From positions 1-30,764 of the IMG/VR virus record IMGVR_UViG_3300036851_000144: a DNA stretch of 30,764 bases, one strand, 5' to 3'. This stretch comes from a virus. Positions 3-8,574 of this stretch are shown here, piece after piece (the stretch's first letter is position 1; every line of letters starts with the position of its first letter). The notes below the pieces were generated by a model, which saw nothing but the letters and a program-made list of their open reading frames with translations, did not search any database and was not told the DNA's origin. The translations under genes and the position numbers were made by a program.

Positions 3-575
3 TGGGACAAGTTCCCAAATCCAATCACACAAGCAGTAATGTTTGGCATTATGGACGTATCTGGTTCAATGGGTGAATGGGAAAAAGAAATGGCAAAGCG
101 CTTCTTCATGATGCTCTTGTTGTTCCTAACATGCAACTATGAACGTGTAGATATCGTATGGATTCGTCACCATACCATTGCTTCAGAAGTAGATGAAGAT
201 GAATTCTTCCATTCGCTGGACTCGGGCGGAACATTGGTGTCGCCAGCGTTGGAGTTGATGAAAGACATCATCGACAAGCGTTACTCGCCTCAACAATGGA
301 ACATTTTCGGTTGCCAGATTTCCGATGGCGATAACTTCCCGACCGATACTGCCCATGCTGTTGAGATCTTGGAGAAGCAAATTCTGCCCGTTTCACGCTA
401 TTTTGCGTATGTTGAAATTGATCAGAATGGTGGTGAAGATAGTGACCTATGGCCAAGCTATAAGGATCTAAAGGGCAGGGTAAAGAATATGGAGATGACC
501 GTCATTGACGACGTTGCCAATATCTATCCTGTGTTCCGTTCACTATTTGAGAAGAAGAAAAATGCTAAAGATTAA
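3..575 (+). CDS. DUF444 / YeaH-like VWA-domain protein (5' truncated by window)
   Basis: The reading frame is open from base 3, so the gene begins upstream and only the C-terminal ~190 residues are seen. It has a von Willebrand A (MIDAS) motif DVSGSMG, then segments strongly resembling Escherichia coli YeaH: a MAKRF helix, IRHHT, the GGT segment, QWNI, SDGDN, and a C-terminal IYPVFR. In bacteria YeaH works with the PrkA-type kinase YeaG, and the genes often sit with SpoVR (YcgB); the set is tied to stress and stationary phase. Here it overlaps spoVR by 14 bases, so the two are translationally coupled. PrkA may lie just upstream, outside the window; that is inference. Family call is firm; role in phage infection is unknown. 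Confidence 0.88.
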   Translation, partial: WDKFPNPITQAVMFGIMDVSGSMGEWEKEMAKRFFMMLLLFLTCNYERVDIVWIRHHTIASEVDEDEFFHSLDSGGTLVSPALELMKDIIDKRYSPQQWNIFGCQISDGDNFPTDTAHAVEILEKQILPVSRYFAYVEIDQNGGEDSDLWPSYKDLKGRVKNMEMTVIDDVANIYPVFRSLFEKKKNAKD

Positions 576-2109
576 CTCTGGTGACGATTGGACAGCGGAC
601 GATATCGAAGATATCTATGCTGCGCTTGATAAGATTTCGAAAGAAAAGTATCAGCTGAATATCTATCCAAATCAGTTGGAGATCATTACATCTGAGCAGA
701 TGTTGGATGCATACGCATCACACGGCTTACCAGTATTCTATCCACACTGGTCCTATGGTGAGCAGTTTGTAAAGCAGATGGAAGCTTACAAACGTGGCTA
801 CATGGGCTTGGCATATGAGATTGTGATCAACTCCAACCCATGCATTGCTTACCTAATGGAAGAGAATACTCTTCTGATGCAGGCGCTTGTTATTGCACAT
901 GCCTCCTTCGGCCACAACTATTTCTTCAAGAACAACTATCTGTTTAAACAGTGGACAGATGCTGAAAGCATTATTGATTACTTGTTGTTTGCCAAGAAGT
1001 ACATCAAAGAATGTGAAGACAAACACGGCATCAACGAAGTTGAAGCTTTACTTGATGCCTGCCATGCATTGCAGTATCACGGTGTTGATAAGTACAAGCG
1101 TGCTCAGAAGTTGTCTGCTGCTCAAGAAGAGAACCTTCGTGATGAGCGCGAGAAGTATAATCAGAGTCAGGTGAACGAGATTTGGAATACAATTCCAAAG
1201 TCAGTTAAAGACAAAGATGATCCTGATAAAGAGCCAGAAGAGAAGTTCCCTTCTGAGCCACAAGAGAACATCCTGTACTTCATTGAGAAGAATGCCCCCC
1301 GCTTGAAGACATGGCAGCGTGAAATCGTCCGCATTGTTAGAAAAGTATCACAGTACTTCTACCCACAATACCAGACCAAGATCATGAATGAAGGATGCGC
1401 AACATTCTTCCATTACAAACTAATTCATGACTTGTTCGACCAGGGATTCATTGATGAAGGTGCAATGATGGAGTTCTATGCTTCACACACTGCTGTTACA
1501 CGTCAGCCTGATTATGACAAGGGTGGCAGCAGCATGAATCCATATGCTCTTGGATACGCAATGTTTTGTGATATTGAGCGTATTTCAATGACCCCGACTC
1601 AAGAAGATCGCGACTGGTTCAGAGGACAGGAGTGGGTTGGTAATGGTGACTGGTTGAAGAACGTTAAATGGGCAATCGAGAACTTCAAGGATGAGAGTTT
1701 CATTCTTCAGTTCTTATCACCAAAGGTAATGCGCGACTTCAGGTTGTTTGCGTATGTTGATGATGAACGTGATCCTGAGCTTGAAATCACAGCGATCCAC
1801 AATGATCGTGGTTACAAGGCCGTTCGTGAGGCACTTGCAAAGCAAAACAATATCGGCTATATGATTCCTGACATTCAAGTTGTTGATGTTGATCGTTGGA
1901 ATGATCGGTCAATGACATTGAAGCATTTTATGGTGGACAGAGTCCCTCTCGATCCAAAGACTACGGATGAGACGATTCGTTATTTATGCTGGTTGTGGGG
2001 ATACCCAATCACTTTACAGACGGTCGACGAAACAGGCGAAGTTCGTGCTGAGTATCATGCCGCCACGTTTGAGAAAACGAAGACAGATCTGTTCTTGGCC
2101 GACGATTGA
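562..2109 (+). CDS. SpoVR family protein
   Basis: 515 residues, close to E. coli YcgB. Family-typical features are the early IYPNQLEIITSEQM segment, PHWSYG near residue 60, the HASFGHNYFFKNN stretch with conserved histidines, and GCATFFHY in the middle. The start at 562 (protein MLKINSGDDW) is chosen because AGAAG lies a few bases upstream and the frame would otherwise run deep into the DUF444 gene. SpoVR was named from a Bacillus spore-cortex phenotype; in Gram-negative bacteria it accompanies YeaG/YeaH and its biochemistry is unknown. The coupled DUF444-SpoVR pair suggests a transferred module used to adjust host physiology. Identification is firm; function in the phage is inference. Confidence 0.92.
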   Translation: MLKINSGDDWTADDIEDIYAALDKISKEKYQLNIYPNQLEIITSEQMLDAYASHGLPVFYPHWSYGEQFVKQMEAYKRGYMGLAYEIVINSNPCIAYLMEENTLLMQALVIAHASFGHNYFFKNNYLFKQWTDAESIIDYLLFAKKYIKECEDKHGINEVEALLDACHALQYHGVDKYKRAQKLSAAQEENLRDEREKYNQSQVNEIWNTIPKSVKDKDDPDKEPEEKFPSEPQENILYFIEKNAPRLKTWQREIVRIVRKVSQYFYPQYQTKIMNEGCATFFHYKLIHDLFDQGFIDEGAMMEFYASHTAVTRQPDYDKGGSSMNPYALGYAMFCDIERISMTPTQEDRDWFRGQEWVGNGDWLKNVKWAIENFKDESFILQFLSPKVMRDFRLFAYVDDERDPELEITAIHNDRGYKAVREALAKQNNIGYMIPDIQVVDVDRWNDRSMTLKHFMVDRVPLDPKTTDETIRYLCWLWGYPITLQTVDETGEVRAEYHAATFEKTKTDLFLADD

Positions 2110-3799: not shown

Positions 3800-4324
3800 A
3801 TGCGCAGCTATTTCTTTGGTAACATGTATCTCTCGTCTATTCAGCAGGGCATTCAAGCTGCTCATGTAGTGCATGATATGTTTGTCAAGTACCAAATCGA
3901 AAGTGAACAGAAGCGAACGCTGTTCGATTGGGCTACCAATCGCAAAACTATGATCCTTCTGAATGCTGGTTATGCAGATGAAATTCTGAAACTGCAAGAA
4001 TTCTTTCGTTCAGCTGAAAATCCATATCCGTGGGCTACCTTTCACGAAGAAGGTGCTTCACTGAATTTTGCCGCCACATCAGTCGGTATCGTGTTGCCTG
4101 AAAAGATTTACGATCGTACTAATTGGAGGATTGTAGTTCGCGAAACTGGCTTCCCACCAATCGGCGGCTCTATCGTGGGTGAAGCGTGTAAAGATGCCGT
4201 CATGGGTGACTGTGCGTATTTCACTTGGCAGCATCTGAATCCAATCACTCAACAGATCGAAGAACTTAACGCGTACGATCAGGTACTTGCTCGACGCATT
4301 ACACAATACAGGTTTGCAATCTAA
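3800..4324 (+). CDS. PTH2-like (peptidyl-tRNA hydrolase 2 fold) protein, tentative
   Basis: 174 residues. The first ~100 align by eye with type 2 peptidyl-tRNA hydrolases: a GIQAAH helix in the place of the family's AAQCSHAA, a strand KTMILL followed by a helix like the 'VVVKAPDEETLIAL' region, then EEGASLNFAATSVGIVLPEKI in the place of 'DAGRTQIAPGSQTVLGIGP'. PTH2 releases peptides from stalled peptidyl-tRNA. The ~70-residue C-terminal part (several aromatic residues and two cysteines) is not recognised. The gene has AGAGGG before the ATG and overlaps the Thg1 gene by one base, fitting an RNA-related role. The family call is pattern-based and needs a structural or profile search. Confidence 0.5.
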   Translation: MRSYFFGNMYLSSIQQGIQAAHVVHDMFVKYQIESEQKRTLFDWATNRKTMILLNAGYADEILKLQEFFRSAENPYPWATFHEEGASLNFAATSVGIVLPEKIYDRTNWRIVVRETGFPPIGGSIVGEACKDAVMGDCAYFTWQHLNPITQQIEELNAYDQVLARRITQYRFAI

Positions 4325-5121
4325 TGAAAGGCGACTCTCTTGGCGATAGAATGAAACGCTACGAAGAAGCAGTGGGACCAACACTGCTTCGACGTACACC
4401 GGTAATCATCCGTGTTGATGGGAAAGCATTCCATACTTTTACACGACGCCTCACGAAGGAATTAGATCCAACTGCAGAGTTCCATTTTAGTCACCGCTTT
4501 CATACAGTGATGATGAACGTAGCTGAACAAATGACACATGGCATACAAGGTGCAAAGGTCGCATATACTCAATCAGACGAGATCTCAATCTTACTTCGTG
4601 ATTGGGACACACTAACCACCAGTGCTTGGTTTGATTATAAAGCTCAGAAGGTAGTATCAGTTGCTGCATCACAAGCTGCTGCATATTTCAATTTCTTCTG
4701 GAATGAAGAATTTAAAGACGATGCCCCAATAACACAAGTGTGTGGTGTTGCACAGTTTGATGCGCGTGTGTTTAACATGCCGTTCGATGATGTTGCCAAT
4801 TATTTCATCTGGCGCCAGAAAGATGCGATGCGAAACAGTGTTAACTTTGTTGGGCGTAAATACTTCCCTCATAAGAAGCTTGAGGGTAAGAAAACATCTG
4901 AAGTAAAAGCGATGCTATTCGCTCAACATGGTGTACAGTGGGACGAGTATCCTATCTGGGAGCAAAGGGGTTCTTGTATTACTACCAATCCTTTTGATGG
5001 TAATACGCGTGTGCAACAGGATAACTACATTCCTGTCTTCACAGAAGATAGAAAATATATAACAAGATTTTTGGAGATAGTTGATGACTCAGCTGGACAG
5101 CAACAAGACGTACATCTATAA
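4324..5121 (+). CDS. thg1: tRNA(His) guanylyltransferase (Thg1) / Thg1-like 3'-5' polymerase
   Basis: 265 residues with the Thg1 signatures in order: RVDGKAFHTFT (30-40) carrying the first metal-binding Asp, AYTQSDEIS (80-88) carrying the second Asp-Glu, the KVVSVAASQAAAYFN helix, FDARVFN, and NYFIWRQKDAMRNS. Thg1 adds G-1 to tRNA(His); bacterial and phage Thg1-like proteins repair 5'-truncated tRNAs by templated 3'-5' addition. TAATG overlap with the previous gene shows coupling. In most bacteria G-1 is encoded, so repair of damaged tRNA is the likelier job here; that is inference. Family call is firm. Confidence 0.93.
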   Translation: MKGDSLGDRMKRYEEAVGPTLLRRTPVIIRVDGKAFHTFTRRLTKELDPTAEFHFSHRFHTVMMNVAEQMTHGIQGAKVAYTQSDEISILLRDWDTLTTSAWFDYKAQKVVSVAASQAAAYFNFFWNEEFKDDAPITQVCGVAQFDARVFNMPFDDVANYFIWRQKDAMRNSVNFVGRKYFPHKKLEGKKTSEVKAMLFAQHGVQWDEYPIWEQRGSCITTNPFDGNTRVQQDNYIPVFTEDRKYITRFLEIVDDSAGQQQDVHL

Positions 5122-6185: not shown

Positions 6186-6547
6186 TGGTAATCAACAAAG
6201 TAATGAAATCCGTAAACAGCAAATTGCTCATTTCGCAAATTACTGCATATGCTGAAGAGTTGATGACCACAGCTGGCATTAACTGGGCTGATGAATCAGA
6301 ACGTGTGACAGTAGCCACCATGCTTGAAGAGTACCTTGCTGAACTGAACGAAACAGATGGTTCAGTTGAGCAGTACAAGGTCATTTCAGATCGTCGCAAC
6401 AATACAGTTGCTAACTCCCTGAGAGGCTTATATAATTTGCACCTTATTTTCCGTCAGAAAAACTGTTTCAACACCACAAAAATCCTATATACTATCAATG
6501 TTGGACCAAACATCGATTTGAACGACACGCCGGACTTCACTATTTAA
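6182..6547 (+). CDS. Hypothetical protein downstream of thymidylate synthase
   Basis: 121 residues, ATGA-coupled to thymidylate synthase (a second ATG follows directly). The N-terminal half is helical and acidic. The C-terminal half (YKVISDRRNNTVANSL, then LIFRQKNCFNTTKILYTINV) reads as alternating beta strands. That strand pattern recalls C-terminal domains of tail-sheath or tube-like proteins, but the similarity is too weak to assign. No catalytic motif is seen. Confidence 0.75.
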   Translation: MMVINKVMKSVNSKLLISQITAYAEELMTTAGINWADESERVTVATMLEEYLAELNETDGSVEQYKVISDRRNNTVANSLRGLYNLHLIFRQKNCFNTTKILYTINVGPNIDLNDTPDFTI

Positions 6548-6559
6548 TTAGGGATCCAC

Positions 6560-6757
6560 ATGCTGCTTGCTTCATCGGGTTGGTGCTATGGGTGTCATTA
6601 CACTGTGCTGCATAATCGTAGCACAATGGAGTTTGAAATTAGATTCACCCTTCCAGGAGGAAAGGTGGTAGAGCGTAAGTCAAGCTCAATGGAAGCTGCA
6701 TCGCAGTGGATTGAGCGAATGGGCTTGCAAAGGATAAGAAGAGATGAAACTGGATGA
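6560..6757 (+). CDS. Hypothetical small protein
   Basis: 65 residues. AGGGA lies about five bases before the ATG at 6560 and supports that start. An internal ATG at 6626 would give a neat 43-residue beta-beta-alpha peptide (MEFEIRFTLPGGKVVERK onward) but has no Shine-Dalgarno. The last 14 bases overlap the Acb1-like gene. No family recognised. Confidence 0.6.
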   Translation: MLLASSGWCYGCHYTVLHNRSTMEFEIRFTLPGGKVVERKSSSMEAASQWIERMGLQRIRRDETG

Positions 6758-7250
6758 GTTGATCGTAGAAAAGAAACAACCAGATGGAACGTATGCTGGT
6801 GTTCACTTCTCAAAAGAAACAGTTGAAGCAATTGCTGCTTACTGCAAAGAAAACAAAATCCCAAACCGTACTCGTCATGAGAAGATGCACACTACAGTTC
6901 TCTATAGTCGCAAGTATTTGCCAGACTACGAGCCAGCAGGCAAGTATGAAAAACCAATGATCGGTACCCCTACGGGATTTGATATTTGGCCTTCTAAAGG
7001 TGAAGATCCAAAGAACTGTTTGGTACTTGAATACAAATGCCCCGAATTAGAAAAACGCCATGAAGAGTTGATGAAGGACCATGAAGCAACGTATGACTTT
7101 GACGAATACAAAACACACATCACGTTCTCATATGACGTCGGTGATCTTGATATTAAGACGCTTCCAAAGTTCGAAAGCAAAATCGAAATTGTTGAAGAAT
7201 ATGGTCAGGACTTGGATTTGAATTGGGCAGATAAGAGCACCAAGAAATGA
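6744..7250 (+). CDS. acb1: Acb1-like anti-CBASS cyclic-oligonucleotide phosphodiesterase (2H fold)
   Basis: 168 residues, similar in length and pattern to T4 gp57B (Acb1). Two HxT motifs of the 2H phosphoesterase superfamily are present: HTTVLYS (His49, Thr51) and HITFSYDVG (His125, Thr127), the second inside the T4-like context TYDF...Y..HITFSYDVG. Acb1 cleaves the cyclic di- and trinucleotide signals of CBASS immunity and so blocks host suicide. ATGA coupling to the next gene and overlap with the previous one place it in the thymidylate synthase operon, consistent with early expression. Whether its substrate range matches T4 Acb1 cannot be read from sequence. Confidence 0.85.
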   Translation: MKLDELIVEKKQPDGTYAGVHFSKETVEAIAAYCKENKIPNRTRHEKMHTTVLYSRKYLPDYEPAGKYEKPMIGTPTGFDIWPSKGEDPKNCLVLEYKCPELEKRHEELMKDHEATYDFDEYKTHITFSYDVGDLDIKTLPKFESKIEIVEEYGQDLDLNWADKSTKK

Positions 7251-7432
7251 GCACACCTGTTAAACCGGGAGTGTATAAATTTTGGGGTGGATATCTCAAT
7301 GTGATTGACATGACCAAGTTTACATTAACACCAGCTCAAATTGGTGAACAGCCACTACTTTCCCCCATGAATGACCAAGAACGTGCACGGTTGATCGATT
7401 CACTCAGAGTTGACTTCAAAACACCAATCTAG
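7247..7432 (+). CDS. Hypothetical small protein
   Basis: 61 residues, coupled by ATGA to the Acb1-like gene. No domain is recognised. It ends with TAG immediately upstream of the late promoter for the tmRNA and is the last gene of the operon that starts near 3800. Confidence 0.65.
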   Translation: MSTPVKPGVYKFWGGYLNVIDMTKFTLTPAQIGEQPLLSPMNDQERARLIDSLRVDFKTPI

Positions 7433-7440
7433 TATAAATA
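7433..7440 (+). promoter_or_regulatory. T4-type late promoter TATAAATA before the tmRNA
   Basis: Exact late consensus, one base after the preceding stop codon. A transcript starting about six bases downstream would include the whole tmRNA acceptor piece. Confidence 0.7.
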
Positions 7441-7716
7441 ACAGCAATGGTTGTAAACTTTCTTTTCGAAAGTGCTTAGGACGCGGTTTCGCCACCGCCA
7501 TCTCCACCAAGTTTGAGAAATCGCATTTGGGGATGAAGATGTTTCGACTAGGTTCGTAGTAAAATTGTAAAGCAACTCGAAAGACGACTGACGTAATCAG
7601 CGTAAACAAAAGTAAATGCAGCAAACGATGCAGACTTTGGTGATTTCGCTTTCCGCAAGGCAGCTTAATTTTACCGGGGTGGAGATTTAACCACCTGTCA
7701 ACAGAAACAAAATGGA
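7441..7716 (+). ncRNA. ssrA: Circularly permuted (two-piece) tmRNA
   Basis: tmRNA rescues stalled ribosomes and tags the nascent peptide. Here its halves are swapped. First comes the acceptor piece: hairpin ACTTTC/GAAAGT (7457-7473), GGACGCGG, a T arm (GCGGT 7483-7487 with ACCGC 7494-7498), then CATCTCC-A-CCA ending at 7509 with CCA encoded. A 19-base spacer follows. The coding piece starts at 7529 with GGGGATG, which pairs with 7499-7505 as a 7-bp acceptor stem. That stem has G3-U70 (7531, 7503), the alanyl-tRNA synthetase identity pair, and A73. Next come the conserved TTTCGAC, AAGCA (7570-7574, can pair with TGCTT 7473-7477), a CTGA/TCAG stem, the tag frame (7618-7668) and a GGTGG/CCACC stem (7678-7695). 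The T loop is six bases, one short. Exact mature ends are estimated. Confidence 0.9.
7618..7668 (+). other. tmRNA proteolysis-tag reading frame
   Basis: Codons read AANDADFGDFAFRKAA then TAA; the resume codon is either the first or second GCA. The AAND or AND start is typical of tags. The last three residues are KAA rather than the common LAA or VAA, which may alter recognition by ClpX or other adaptors. Confidence 0.85.
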
Positions 7717-7745
7717 AGGGAGAAGAGAAATCTTCTCCCTTTTTT
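7717..7745 (+). terminator. Rho-independent terminator of the tmRNA
   Basis: A perfect 10-bp stem (AGGGAGAAGA with TCTTCTCCCT) closed by a GAAA loop and followed by a run of T. It ends the tmRNA transcript and probably also insulates the genes downstream. Confidence 0.95.
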
Positions 7746-7755
7746 ATTGCCTGGC

Positions 7756-7803: not shown

Positions 7804-7926
7804 ATGACATCACTATTCTGGTTATTGGTCGGCGCATTTGTCGGCTGGAATGTTCCTCAACCAAAGTGGGCTGTAGACGCAAAGGCAAAAGTAGTTGCAT
7901 TCGTCAAGGGCTTGTTCGTAAAGTAA
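7804..7926 (+). CDS. 40-residue membrane peptide
   Basis: The ORF begins MTSLFWLLVGAFVGWNV, a hydrophobic N-terminal segment of about 15 residues, followed by PQPKWAVDAKAKVVAF and ends KGLFVK. AGGAG lies seven bases before the ATG. Single-span peptides of this kind are common in T4-like phages; no function is recognised. Its ribosome site is the 3' arm of the hairpin at 7764-7796, so expression may be confined to transcripts starting just upstream. Confidence 0.7.
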   Translation: MTSLFWLLVGAFVGWNVPQPKWAVDAKAKVVAFVKGLFVK

Positions 7927-7941
7927 TATAAGAACCATATC

Positions 7942-8574
7942 ATGCCAGTTCCTAACAAAGAAGATTTGTTACAAGAGATAGAACCTGCTAAGTACAAGCA
8001 CTATGAACAACAAGTAGTTCATAAGCTTCATCATTTTTATTTGTCACAACAGATTGAAGAGCCACCTCACTATACGGATATGATTCATCGTATCCATACA
8101 GCAAGTCCAGAAGATGTGATTCACATTCATCTGAACACTCCAGGTGGCCACTTAGATACTGGAATGCAAATCATTAATGCGATGCGTTCGACTCCTGCTC
8201 ATGTGATCTGCAGCATTGAATCCGAAGCACACTCATTAGGCACACTGATTTTCTTAGCAGCTGATGAGTTCGTTGTGCATGACAACGTTATGATGATGTT
8301 CCACAACTATAGTGGTGGTGTGTTTGGCAAAGGCCACGAACAAGCTGCTCAACTTGAAGGAACTAAGAAGTGGTTTAGTTCACTTGCTCGCAAGTTGTAC
8401 ATTCCATTCTTGACTGAAGAAGAACTCGCGCGCCTTGAGCGTGGTGAGGACATTTACCTTCACTCAGATGACATTCGTAAACGTCTTGACCGTGTTGTTA
8501 ATGCAGCCAAGAAAGTCGAACGTAAGCTAAAAAAGAAGTCCAAGAAAACCAAAGACAAAACAGAAGAGAGTTGA
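7942..8574 (+). CDS. ClpP-like serine protease
   Basis: 210 residues with the ClpP/crotonase fold. Visible: LNTPGGHLDTGMQI (64-77, oxyanion-hole region, ClpP 'NSPGG'), nucleophile Ser98 in EAHSLGT, catalytic His121 in MMFHNYSGG, and a candidate Asp170 in GEDIYLHSDD. The C-terminus is a lysine-rich tail not found in bacterial ClpP. The protein has no ATPase partner in this window and could use host ClpX or ClpA, act alone, or process virion proteins as phage ClpP-like prohead proteases do. It lies about 200 bases after the tmRNA terminator. Fold call is firm; target unknown. Confidence 0.88.
   Translation: MPVPNKEDLLQEIEPAKYKHYEQQVVHKLHHFYLSQQIEEPPHYTDMIHRIHTASPEDVIHIHLNTPGGHLDTGMQIINAMRSTPAHVICSIESEAHSLGTLIFLAADEFVVHDNVMMMFHNYSGGVFGKGHEQAAQLEGTKKWFSSLARKLYIPFLTEEELARLERGEDIYLHSDDIRKRLDRVVNAAKKVERKLKKKSKKTKDKTEES

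What the first reader, a model, noticed from the sequence alone, without database searches (positions are those of the whole stretch)
7433..7745. A complete circularly permuted tmRNA gene carried by a T4-like phage
Seen: CCA-ending acceptor piece first, GGGGATG coding piece second, a 7-bp acceptor stem joining 7499-7505 with 7529-7535, G3-U70 and A73 alanine identity, TTTCGAC, a tag frame ending in AA-stop, and a perfect terminator. The exact late promoter TATAAATA stands immediately upstream. Known: two-piece tmRNA occurs in alphaproteobacteria and a few other lineages, and phage-borne tmRNA genes are rare. Inference: the phage makes its own split tmRNA late, to rescue ribosomes stalled on cleaved host or phage mRNAs.
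Basis: partly seen in the sequence, partly recalled or inferred. Interest (0 to 1): 0.95.

Follow-up and report, generated by a model that had tools for sequence, protein, structure and literature searches.

The report
Phage-borne two-piece tmRNA beside ClpP
A large T4-like phage carries its own split version of the bacterial RNA that frees stuck ribosomes; phage tmRNAs of this kind are already known, but in this phage group the gene sits beside a Clp-type protease gene and behind an unusual promoter that looks both early and late.

Summary
Window 7449-7668 matches Rfam's permuted tmRNA model (RF04321, 95 bits, E 1.8e-17), with a 7-bp acceptor stem across the two pieces, G3.U70, A73 and the tag AANDADFGDFAFRKAA. 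ARAGORN misses it, probably because the T-loop has 6 nt instead of 7. Phage-borne permuted tmRNAs are not rare: one strict pattern found at least 120 viral stretches, and they are published (phage Melnitz).
What I add: fourteen diverged loci, this one included, keep a permuted tmRNA upstream of a ClpP-like protease, mostly with the anti-CBASS gene acb1 further upstream; one relative has lost the tmRNA. Across the 14, the acceptor stem covaries between the pieces (97/98 pairs) while G3.U70 never changes.
TATAAATA does mark late-type promoters in this clade, but the tmRNA copy also has TTGAC 16-18 bp upstream in 12 of 14 loci (0 of 11 other TATAAATA sites). It looks like a composite sigma70 and late promoter, so expression is probably early as well as late.
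Most likely it is a working two-piece tmRNA that uses host SmpB, AlaRS and RNase P. No smpB or clpX was found in the phages. New member of a known kind.

The parts
7410..7415 (+). -35-like element TTGACT, 17 bp before TATAAATA
   Evidence: sequence; conserved at 16-18 bp in 12 of 14 clade tmRNAs, 0 of 11 other ORF-linked TATAAATA sites
7433..7440 (+). TATAAATA: T4-type late promoter octamer, also readable as a sigma70 -10 (TATAAA)
   Evidence: within 60 nt upstream of tmRNA in 10 of 14 loci (0.013 expected), NNTAAATA 14 of 14 (0.24 expected)
7446..7509 (+). acceptor piece (T-arm, 3' acceptor strand CATCTCC, ACCA); 5' end inferred from promoter spacing
   Evidence: RF04321 alignment from 7449; cofold
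7510..7528 (+). 19-nt intervening segment, presumably removed by processing
   Evidence: inference from two-piece tmRNA biology
7529..7720 (+). coding piece: 5' acceptor strand GGGGATG, TTTCGAC, pseudoknot region near 7577-7605, tag; 3' end inferred
7618..7668 (+). tag reading frame AANDADFGDFAFRKAA plus stop
7716..7746 (+). terminator hairpin with T-run
   Evidence: 13-bp hairpin; one search lists the same stem on the other strand
7804..7926 (+). 40-aa hydrophobic ORF between tmRNA and clpP; relative in L154
   Evidence: E 2e-5
7942..8574 (+). ClpP-like protease (PF00574), candidate Ser-His-Asp residues S98/H121/D170 invariant in 6 relatives
6744..7250 (+). Acb1 anti-CBASS protein gene, conserved neighbour upstream

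Best explanation
This is a genuine beta-type permuted (two-piece) tmRNA gene of a jumbo T4-like phage. RNA polymerase starts at about 7446, at the 5' end of the acceptor piece. The transcript ends at the hairpin near 7746. Host tRNA-processing enzymes remove the 19-nt insert, leaving two RNAs held by the acceptor stem and the P2 helix. Host AlaRS charges the RNA through G3.U70, and host SmpB delivers it to ribosomes stalled on broken mRNAs; the nascent chain gets a 16-residue tag ending in AA and goes to a Clp protease. The conserved neighbour clpP suggests that a phage ClpP helps with disposal, docked on host ClpX or ClpA. The composite promoter suggests production by host sigma70 from early infection and by the phage late sigma factor afterwards. 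Shown here by sequence: gene structure, covariation, G3.U70 constancy, clpP linkage, promoter elements. Inferred: transcription, processing, charging, tagging and any ClpP coupling.
For: RF04321 and RF01850 full-length hits above gathering score. Fourteen diverged loci, the window included, with a permuted tmRNA upstream of ClpP. Acceptor stem 97/98 pairs with compensatory changes at pairs 4-6 (shuffled mean 79.8, 0 of 20000 as high) and G3.U70 in 14/14. Every tag begins AN[DE] or AAND and ends AA despite sequence divergence. TATAAATA is a real promoter motif in this clade: 11/13 other sites precede an ORF versus 140/560 for permuted octamers, and gp55 (phrog_234) is in all six relatives over 100 kb tested and in XacN1 and RAS14. 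TTGAC -35 in 12/14 tmRNA sites versus 0/11 others. ClpP is separate from the S77 prohead protease. T4 work found host SsrA stable during infection while tRNAs decay, and suggested it is needed to keep ribosomes available (PMC9697503).
Against: The window copy has a 6-nt T-loop TTCGCC without A58, and its tag ends RKAA, whereas the other 13 clade tags end [LVM]AA; either could lower function. The phages carry no detectable smpB or clpX. A sigma70 scan that demands T at the last -10 position does not list the promoter. No expression data exist. Linkage to clpP does not prove functional coupling.
Confidence: 0.72

Rival explanations
1. One reading: purely late expression from a T4-type late promoter, giving a rescue RNA only in the late phase.
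For: Exact TATAAATA at the right distance, motif ORF-linked in this clade, gp55 present in relatives.
Against: T4 late promoters have no -35 element (established knowledge); here TTGAC at 16-18 bp is conserved in 12/14 tmRNA loci and in 0/11 other TATAAATA sites.
Confidence: 0.13
2. Purely sigma70 (early or constitutive) expression; TATAAATA is just a sigma70 -10 variant.
For: TTGACT-17-TATAAA matches 10 of 12 consensus positions; six unrelated phage tmRNAs show TTGACA-17-TATAAATA; Melnitz authors assign their phage tmRNA to an early promoter.
Against: Elsewhere in the fetched loci most TTGAC-17-TATAA matches end TATAAT (about 65 against 11 reading TATAAATA, crude linkage filter), whereas 10 of 14 clade tmRNAs read TATAAATA; three further loci keep TAAATA while losing the TATAAT-like hexamer.
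Confidence: 0.25
3. A decoy or dominant inhibitor of host tmRNA that titrates SmpB, as shown for a tRNA-domain-only form like that of mycobacteriophage DS6A.
For: Precedent in phage (PMC4131195, PMC11915505).
Against: Here the tag frame, its AND...AA ends and the pseudoknot region upstream are kept, which a decoy would not need.
Confidence: 0.08
4. A decaying copy in this one phage, while relatives keep a working gene.
For: 6-nt T-loop without A58, KAA tag end, lowest RF04321 score (95 bits) among the clade hits.
Against: All 7 acceptor pairs, G3.U70, promoter, tag frame and terminator are intact; 6-nt T-loops also occur in L011, L017, L152 and L154, whose genes look intact.
Confidence: 0.12
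5. tmRNA and ClpP form one phage tag-and-destroy pathway aimed mainly at host or phage proteins rather than at ribosome rescue.
For: Linkage in 14 of 15 informative lineages; Melnitz authors suggested selective tagging for amino-acid recycling.
Against: Gene order can be inherited without functional coupling; no phage ClpX found; XacN1 keeps a tmRNA away from clpP.
Confidence: 0.2

Closest known systems
Permuted tmRNA family, Rfam RF04321 (and RF01850 beta_tmRNA)
   Same: Gene order, acceptor stem across pieces, G3.U70, D-loop motif, tag with AA-stop; both models hit full length.
   Different: 6-nt T-loop without A58; tag ends KAA; missed by ARAGORN.
Two-piece tmRNA of OM43 phage Melnitz and other aquatic phages (PMC9004378)
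   Same: Permuted tmRNA on a lytic T4-like myophage; 53 two-piece tmRNAs already counted in phages.
   Different: Melnitz has a riboswitch, an alpha-type RNA and an assigned early promoter; here beta-type, composite promoter, no riboswitch hit, next to clpP.
Huge-phage tmRNA and SmpB (PMC7162821)
   Same: Large phages carrying ribosome-rescue RNA.
   Different: No smpB found in the clade here; that paper does not mention ClpP.
Mycobacteriophage DS6A tRNA-domain-only tmRNA (PMC4131195)
   Same: Phage-borne tmRNA-related RNA.
   Different: DS6A lacks the tag frame; this one keeps it.
T4 late promoters (TATAAATA, gp55)
   Same: Exact octamer; gp55 homologues in relatives.
   Different: Conserved TTGAC -35 element, which T4 late promoters lack.

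Membership tests
Permuted (two-piece) tmRNA | covariance-model match above gathering score | tested here: met
   RF04321 95.0 vs 47 bits; RF01850 89.3 vs 84 bits
Permuted (two-piece) tmRNA | acceptor strand upstream of coding piece, 7-bp stem between them, intervening segment | tested here: met
   7499-7505 with 7529-7535, 19-nt insert; covariation across 14 loci
Permuted (two-piece) tmRNA | alanine identity G3.U70 and A73 | tested here: met
   7531.7503 and 7506; G3.U70 in 14/14
Permuted (two-piece) tmRNA | usual 7-nt T-loop with A58 (typical, not a strict criterion) | tested here: not met
   6-nt TTCGCC; 4 of 93 phage permuted tmRNAs in the survey have 6 nt; the Rfam match holds all the same
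Permuted (two-piece) tmRNA | tag frame starting near AND and ending AA-stop | tested here: met
   AANDADFGDFAFRKAA*
Permuted (two-piece) tmRNA | mature RNA in two pieces, alanylated, tags proteins | not testable with these tools
   needs RNA and protein from infected cells
T4-type late promoter | TATAAATA octamer | tested here: met
   7433-7440; 10/14 exact in clade
T4-type late promoter | no -35 element | tested here: not met
   TTGACT 17 bp upstream; conserved in 12/14
T4-type late promoter | phage encodes gp55-type sigma | tested here: inconclusive
   not in the 30.8-kb window record; present in all six relatives over 100 kb tested, absent from one 89-kb fragment
sigma70 promoter | TTGACA-16/18-TATAAT with T at last -10 position | tested here: inconclusive
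   10 of 12 matches but A at last position
ClpP protease | Pfam Clp_protease match and Ser-His-Asp triad | tested here: met
   PF00574 E 1.2e-11; S98, H121, D170 invariant in six relatives; residue roles assigned by eye

The most novel reading that the evidence does not exclude
This jumbo-phage clade carries a dedicated tag-and-destroy cassette: a phage two-piece tmRNA, driven by one composite promoter read by host sigma70 early and by the phage late sigma factor later, paired with a phage ClpP that replaces or competes with host ClpP in degrading phage-tagged proteins.
Probability: 0.2. Interest if true: 0.8.

Novelty: new member of a known kind. Interest (0 to 1): 0.48.

Why it matters
Why phages carry tmRNA is an open question, with only suggestions in print. 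A clade in which the gene is conserved over deep divergence and nearly always beside clpP gives a concrete, testable hypothesis about what the RNA is for and when it is made. It also shows that standard annotation misses many such genes: ARAGORN misses this one and five of the 13 relatives scanned, and the tmRNA of isolated phage XacN1 is unannotated.

Tried and rejected
Nucleotide search of the tmRNA against 50,697 phage records: no match. Bacterial donor search with a conserved 19-mer: one Paenibacillus match, taken as chance; donor not identified beyond 'beta-type'. SmpB and ClpX in relatives: none. ClpP as prohead protease: rejected, a separate S77 protease is present. Late promoter alone: rejected after the -35 comparison. 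The isolated relatives RAS14 and CM1 have no permuted tmRNA. L144 lacks it: an opposite-strand reading frame seems to fill the place, judged by eye. L002 and L150 are uninformative because the contig ends near the spot. No covariance model of my own was built, since Rfam's sufficed. Literature searches found no report of phage tmRNA linked to clpP, within an open-access library only.

Full report
The window is a 30,764-base IMG/VR virus record, a fragment. PHROGs and Pfam matches give T4-like replication and nucleotide genes around the finding: primase, topoisomerase II subunits, DnaB-like helicase, ribonucleotide reductase, thymidylate synthase.

Observation. Rfam's permuted tmRNA model aligns end to end at 7449-7668 with 95.0 bits (E 1.8e-17), and beta_tmRNA at 7396-7700 with 89.3 bits (E 6.5e-26). 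ARAGORN reports nothing. The likely reason is the T-arm GCGGT-TTCGCC-ACCGC, whose loop is 6 nt and lacks A58. Of 93 phage permuted tmRNAs surveyed, 88 have 7 nt, four have 6 (this one, L011, L017 and L028) and one scored 9; L152, found later, also has 6. L028 and L154 are the same contig.

How common. A strict pattern scan of IMG/VR stopped at 120 stretches, and about 90 distinct tmRNA regions could be read from the fetched loci. Published work already counts 53 two-piece tmRNAs in phages, 50 of them marine or aquatic (PMC9004378), and the tmRNA database holds 79 phage sequences (PMC11915505). So the gene is a new member of a known kind.

Relatives. The gene after the tmRNA is a ClpP-like protease. 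Searching viral contigs with it and scanning the neighbourhoods with Rfam gave 14 distinct loci, the window included, with a permuted tmRNA upstream of ClpP: window, L003, L004, L141, L142, L143, L145, L146, L149, L151, L152, L153, L154, L155. Distance from the end of the tmRNA model to the ClpP match is 109-1242 nt. ClpP identities to the window protein are 45-55% in the aligned set. In a ClpP tree the 14 fall with L144 and L002 in one group (82/89, not strongly supported) apart from XacN1, RAS14 and the 37%-identity group. L144 has lost the tmRNA; L002 and L150 end too near to tell. Acb1, an anti-CBASS protein, lies upstream in 11 of the 13 other tmRNA loci and in L144.

Selection on the RNA. 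The acceptor stem, formed between the two pieces, pairs in 97 of 98 cells; dealing the strands out at random gives 79.8 on average and none of 20,000 shuffles reaches 97. Pairs 4-6 change in a compensatory way, while pair 3.70 is G.U in all 14. Related sequences inflate such counts, but the constancy of a wobble pair next to covarying pairs is what alanine charging predicts. Tags differ widely yet begin AN[DE] (AAND in the window) and end AA; 13 end LAA, VAA or MAA, the window alone ends KAA.

Promoter. TATAAATA lies within 60 nt upstream of the tmRNA model start in 10 of 14 loci (0.013 expected), and NNTAAATA in all 14 (0.24 expected). In seven of those ten the motif begins 12-16 nt before the model start, which would put the transcription start at about the first base of the acceptor piece (T4 late promoter spacing from established knowledge). 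The motif is a promoter in this clade: 11 of 13 other copies precede an ORF, against 140 of 560 for octamers of the same composition, and the late sigma factor gp55 (phrog_234) is found in all six relatives over 100 kb tested and in XacN1 and RAS14. However, the tmRNA copies carry TTGAC (TTGAT in one) 16-18 bp upstream in 12 of 14 loci, and none of the 11 other ORF-linked copies has five of six matches to TTGACA. By eye the other two also have candidates: L153 TTGACT-17-TACTAT and L155 TTGTCT-17-TATAAT. The tmRNA promoter therefore looks composite. Six unrelated phage tmRNAs show TTGACA-17-TATAAATA as well. The last -10 base is A, not T, so the tool's sigma70 scan does not list it; dual use remains an inference.

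Mechanism. A fold of the two predicted pieces gives the acceptor stem and T-arm. No smpB or clpX was detected in the clade records tested, so the RNA must use host partners. In T4 infection host SsrA stays stable while tRNAs decay (PMC9697503), which fits a need for ribosome rescue. ClpP is not the prohead protease, since an S77 protease is present separately. Coupling of tag and phage ClpP is suggested only by linkage; XacN1 keeps its tmRNA elsewhere, in the terminal repeats, unannotated.

Doubts. The short T-loop and the KAA end could mean weakened function in this phage. The record is a metagenomic assembly, so a single-base error cannot be excluded. The 14 loci were gathered through ClpP, so the linkage figure applies to this clade, not to phage tmRNAs at large: most of the other phage tmRNAs fetched have no relative of this ClpP in the stretch held.

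Noticed in passing
Xanthomonas phage XacN1 AP018399 37231-37530 and 356026-356325: Permuted tmRNA (123 bits), tag ANANTFDYALAA, in both terminal repeats; unannotated in the record and not mentioned in the XacN1 paper.
   Followed up: partly
window 6744-7250: Acb1 anti-CBASS homologue (PF23474, 1.5e-36) just upstream of the tmRNA, conserved there in most clade loci.
   Followed up: partly
L138 2769-3851 (phoH) and 6190-6981 (thyA): In-frame insertions of 361 codons in phoH (LAGLIDADG, intein-like) and 264 codons in thyA (no Pfam match) in one relative; the window copies are uninterrupted.
   Followed up: partly
window 39-2109: SpoVR and DUF444 genes, stress or sporulation-type proteins, carried by the phage.
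   Followed up: no
window 4324-5121: Thg1-like tRNA-His guanylyltransferase (PF04446), which could act on RNA ends.
   Followed up: no
window 7618-7668: Tag ends RKAA, the only one of 14 clade tags without L, V or M before the final AA.
   Followed up: no
L131, L133, L135, L136, L137: Another phage group with a permuted tmRNA sharing a 21-nt block with the window, encoding the tag ANDETFALAA and with a long insert, no relative of this clpP detected nearby.
   Followed up: no
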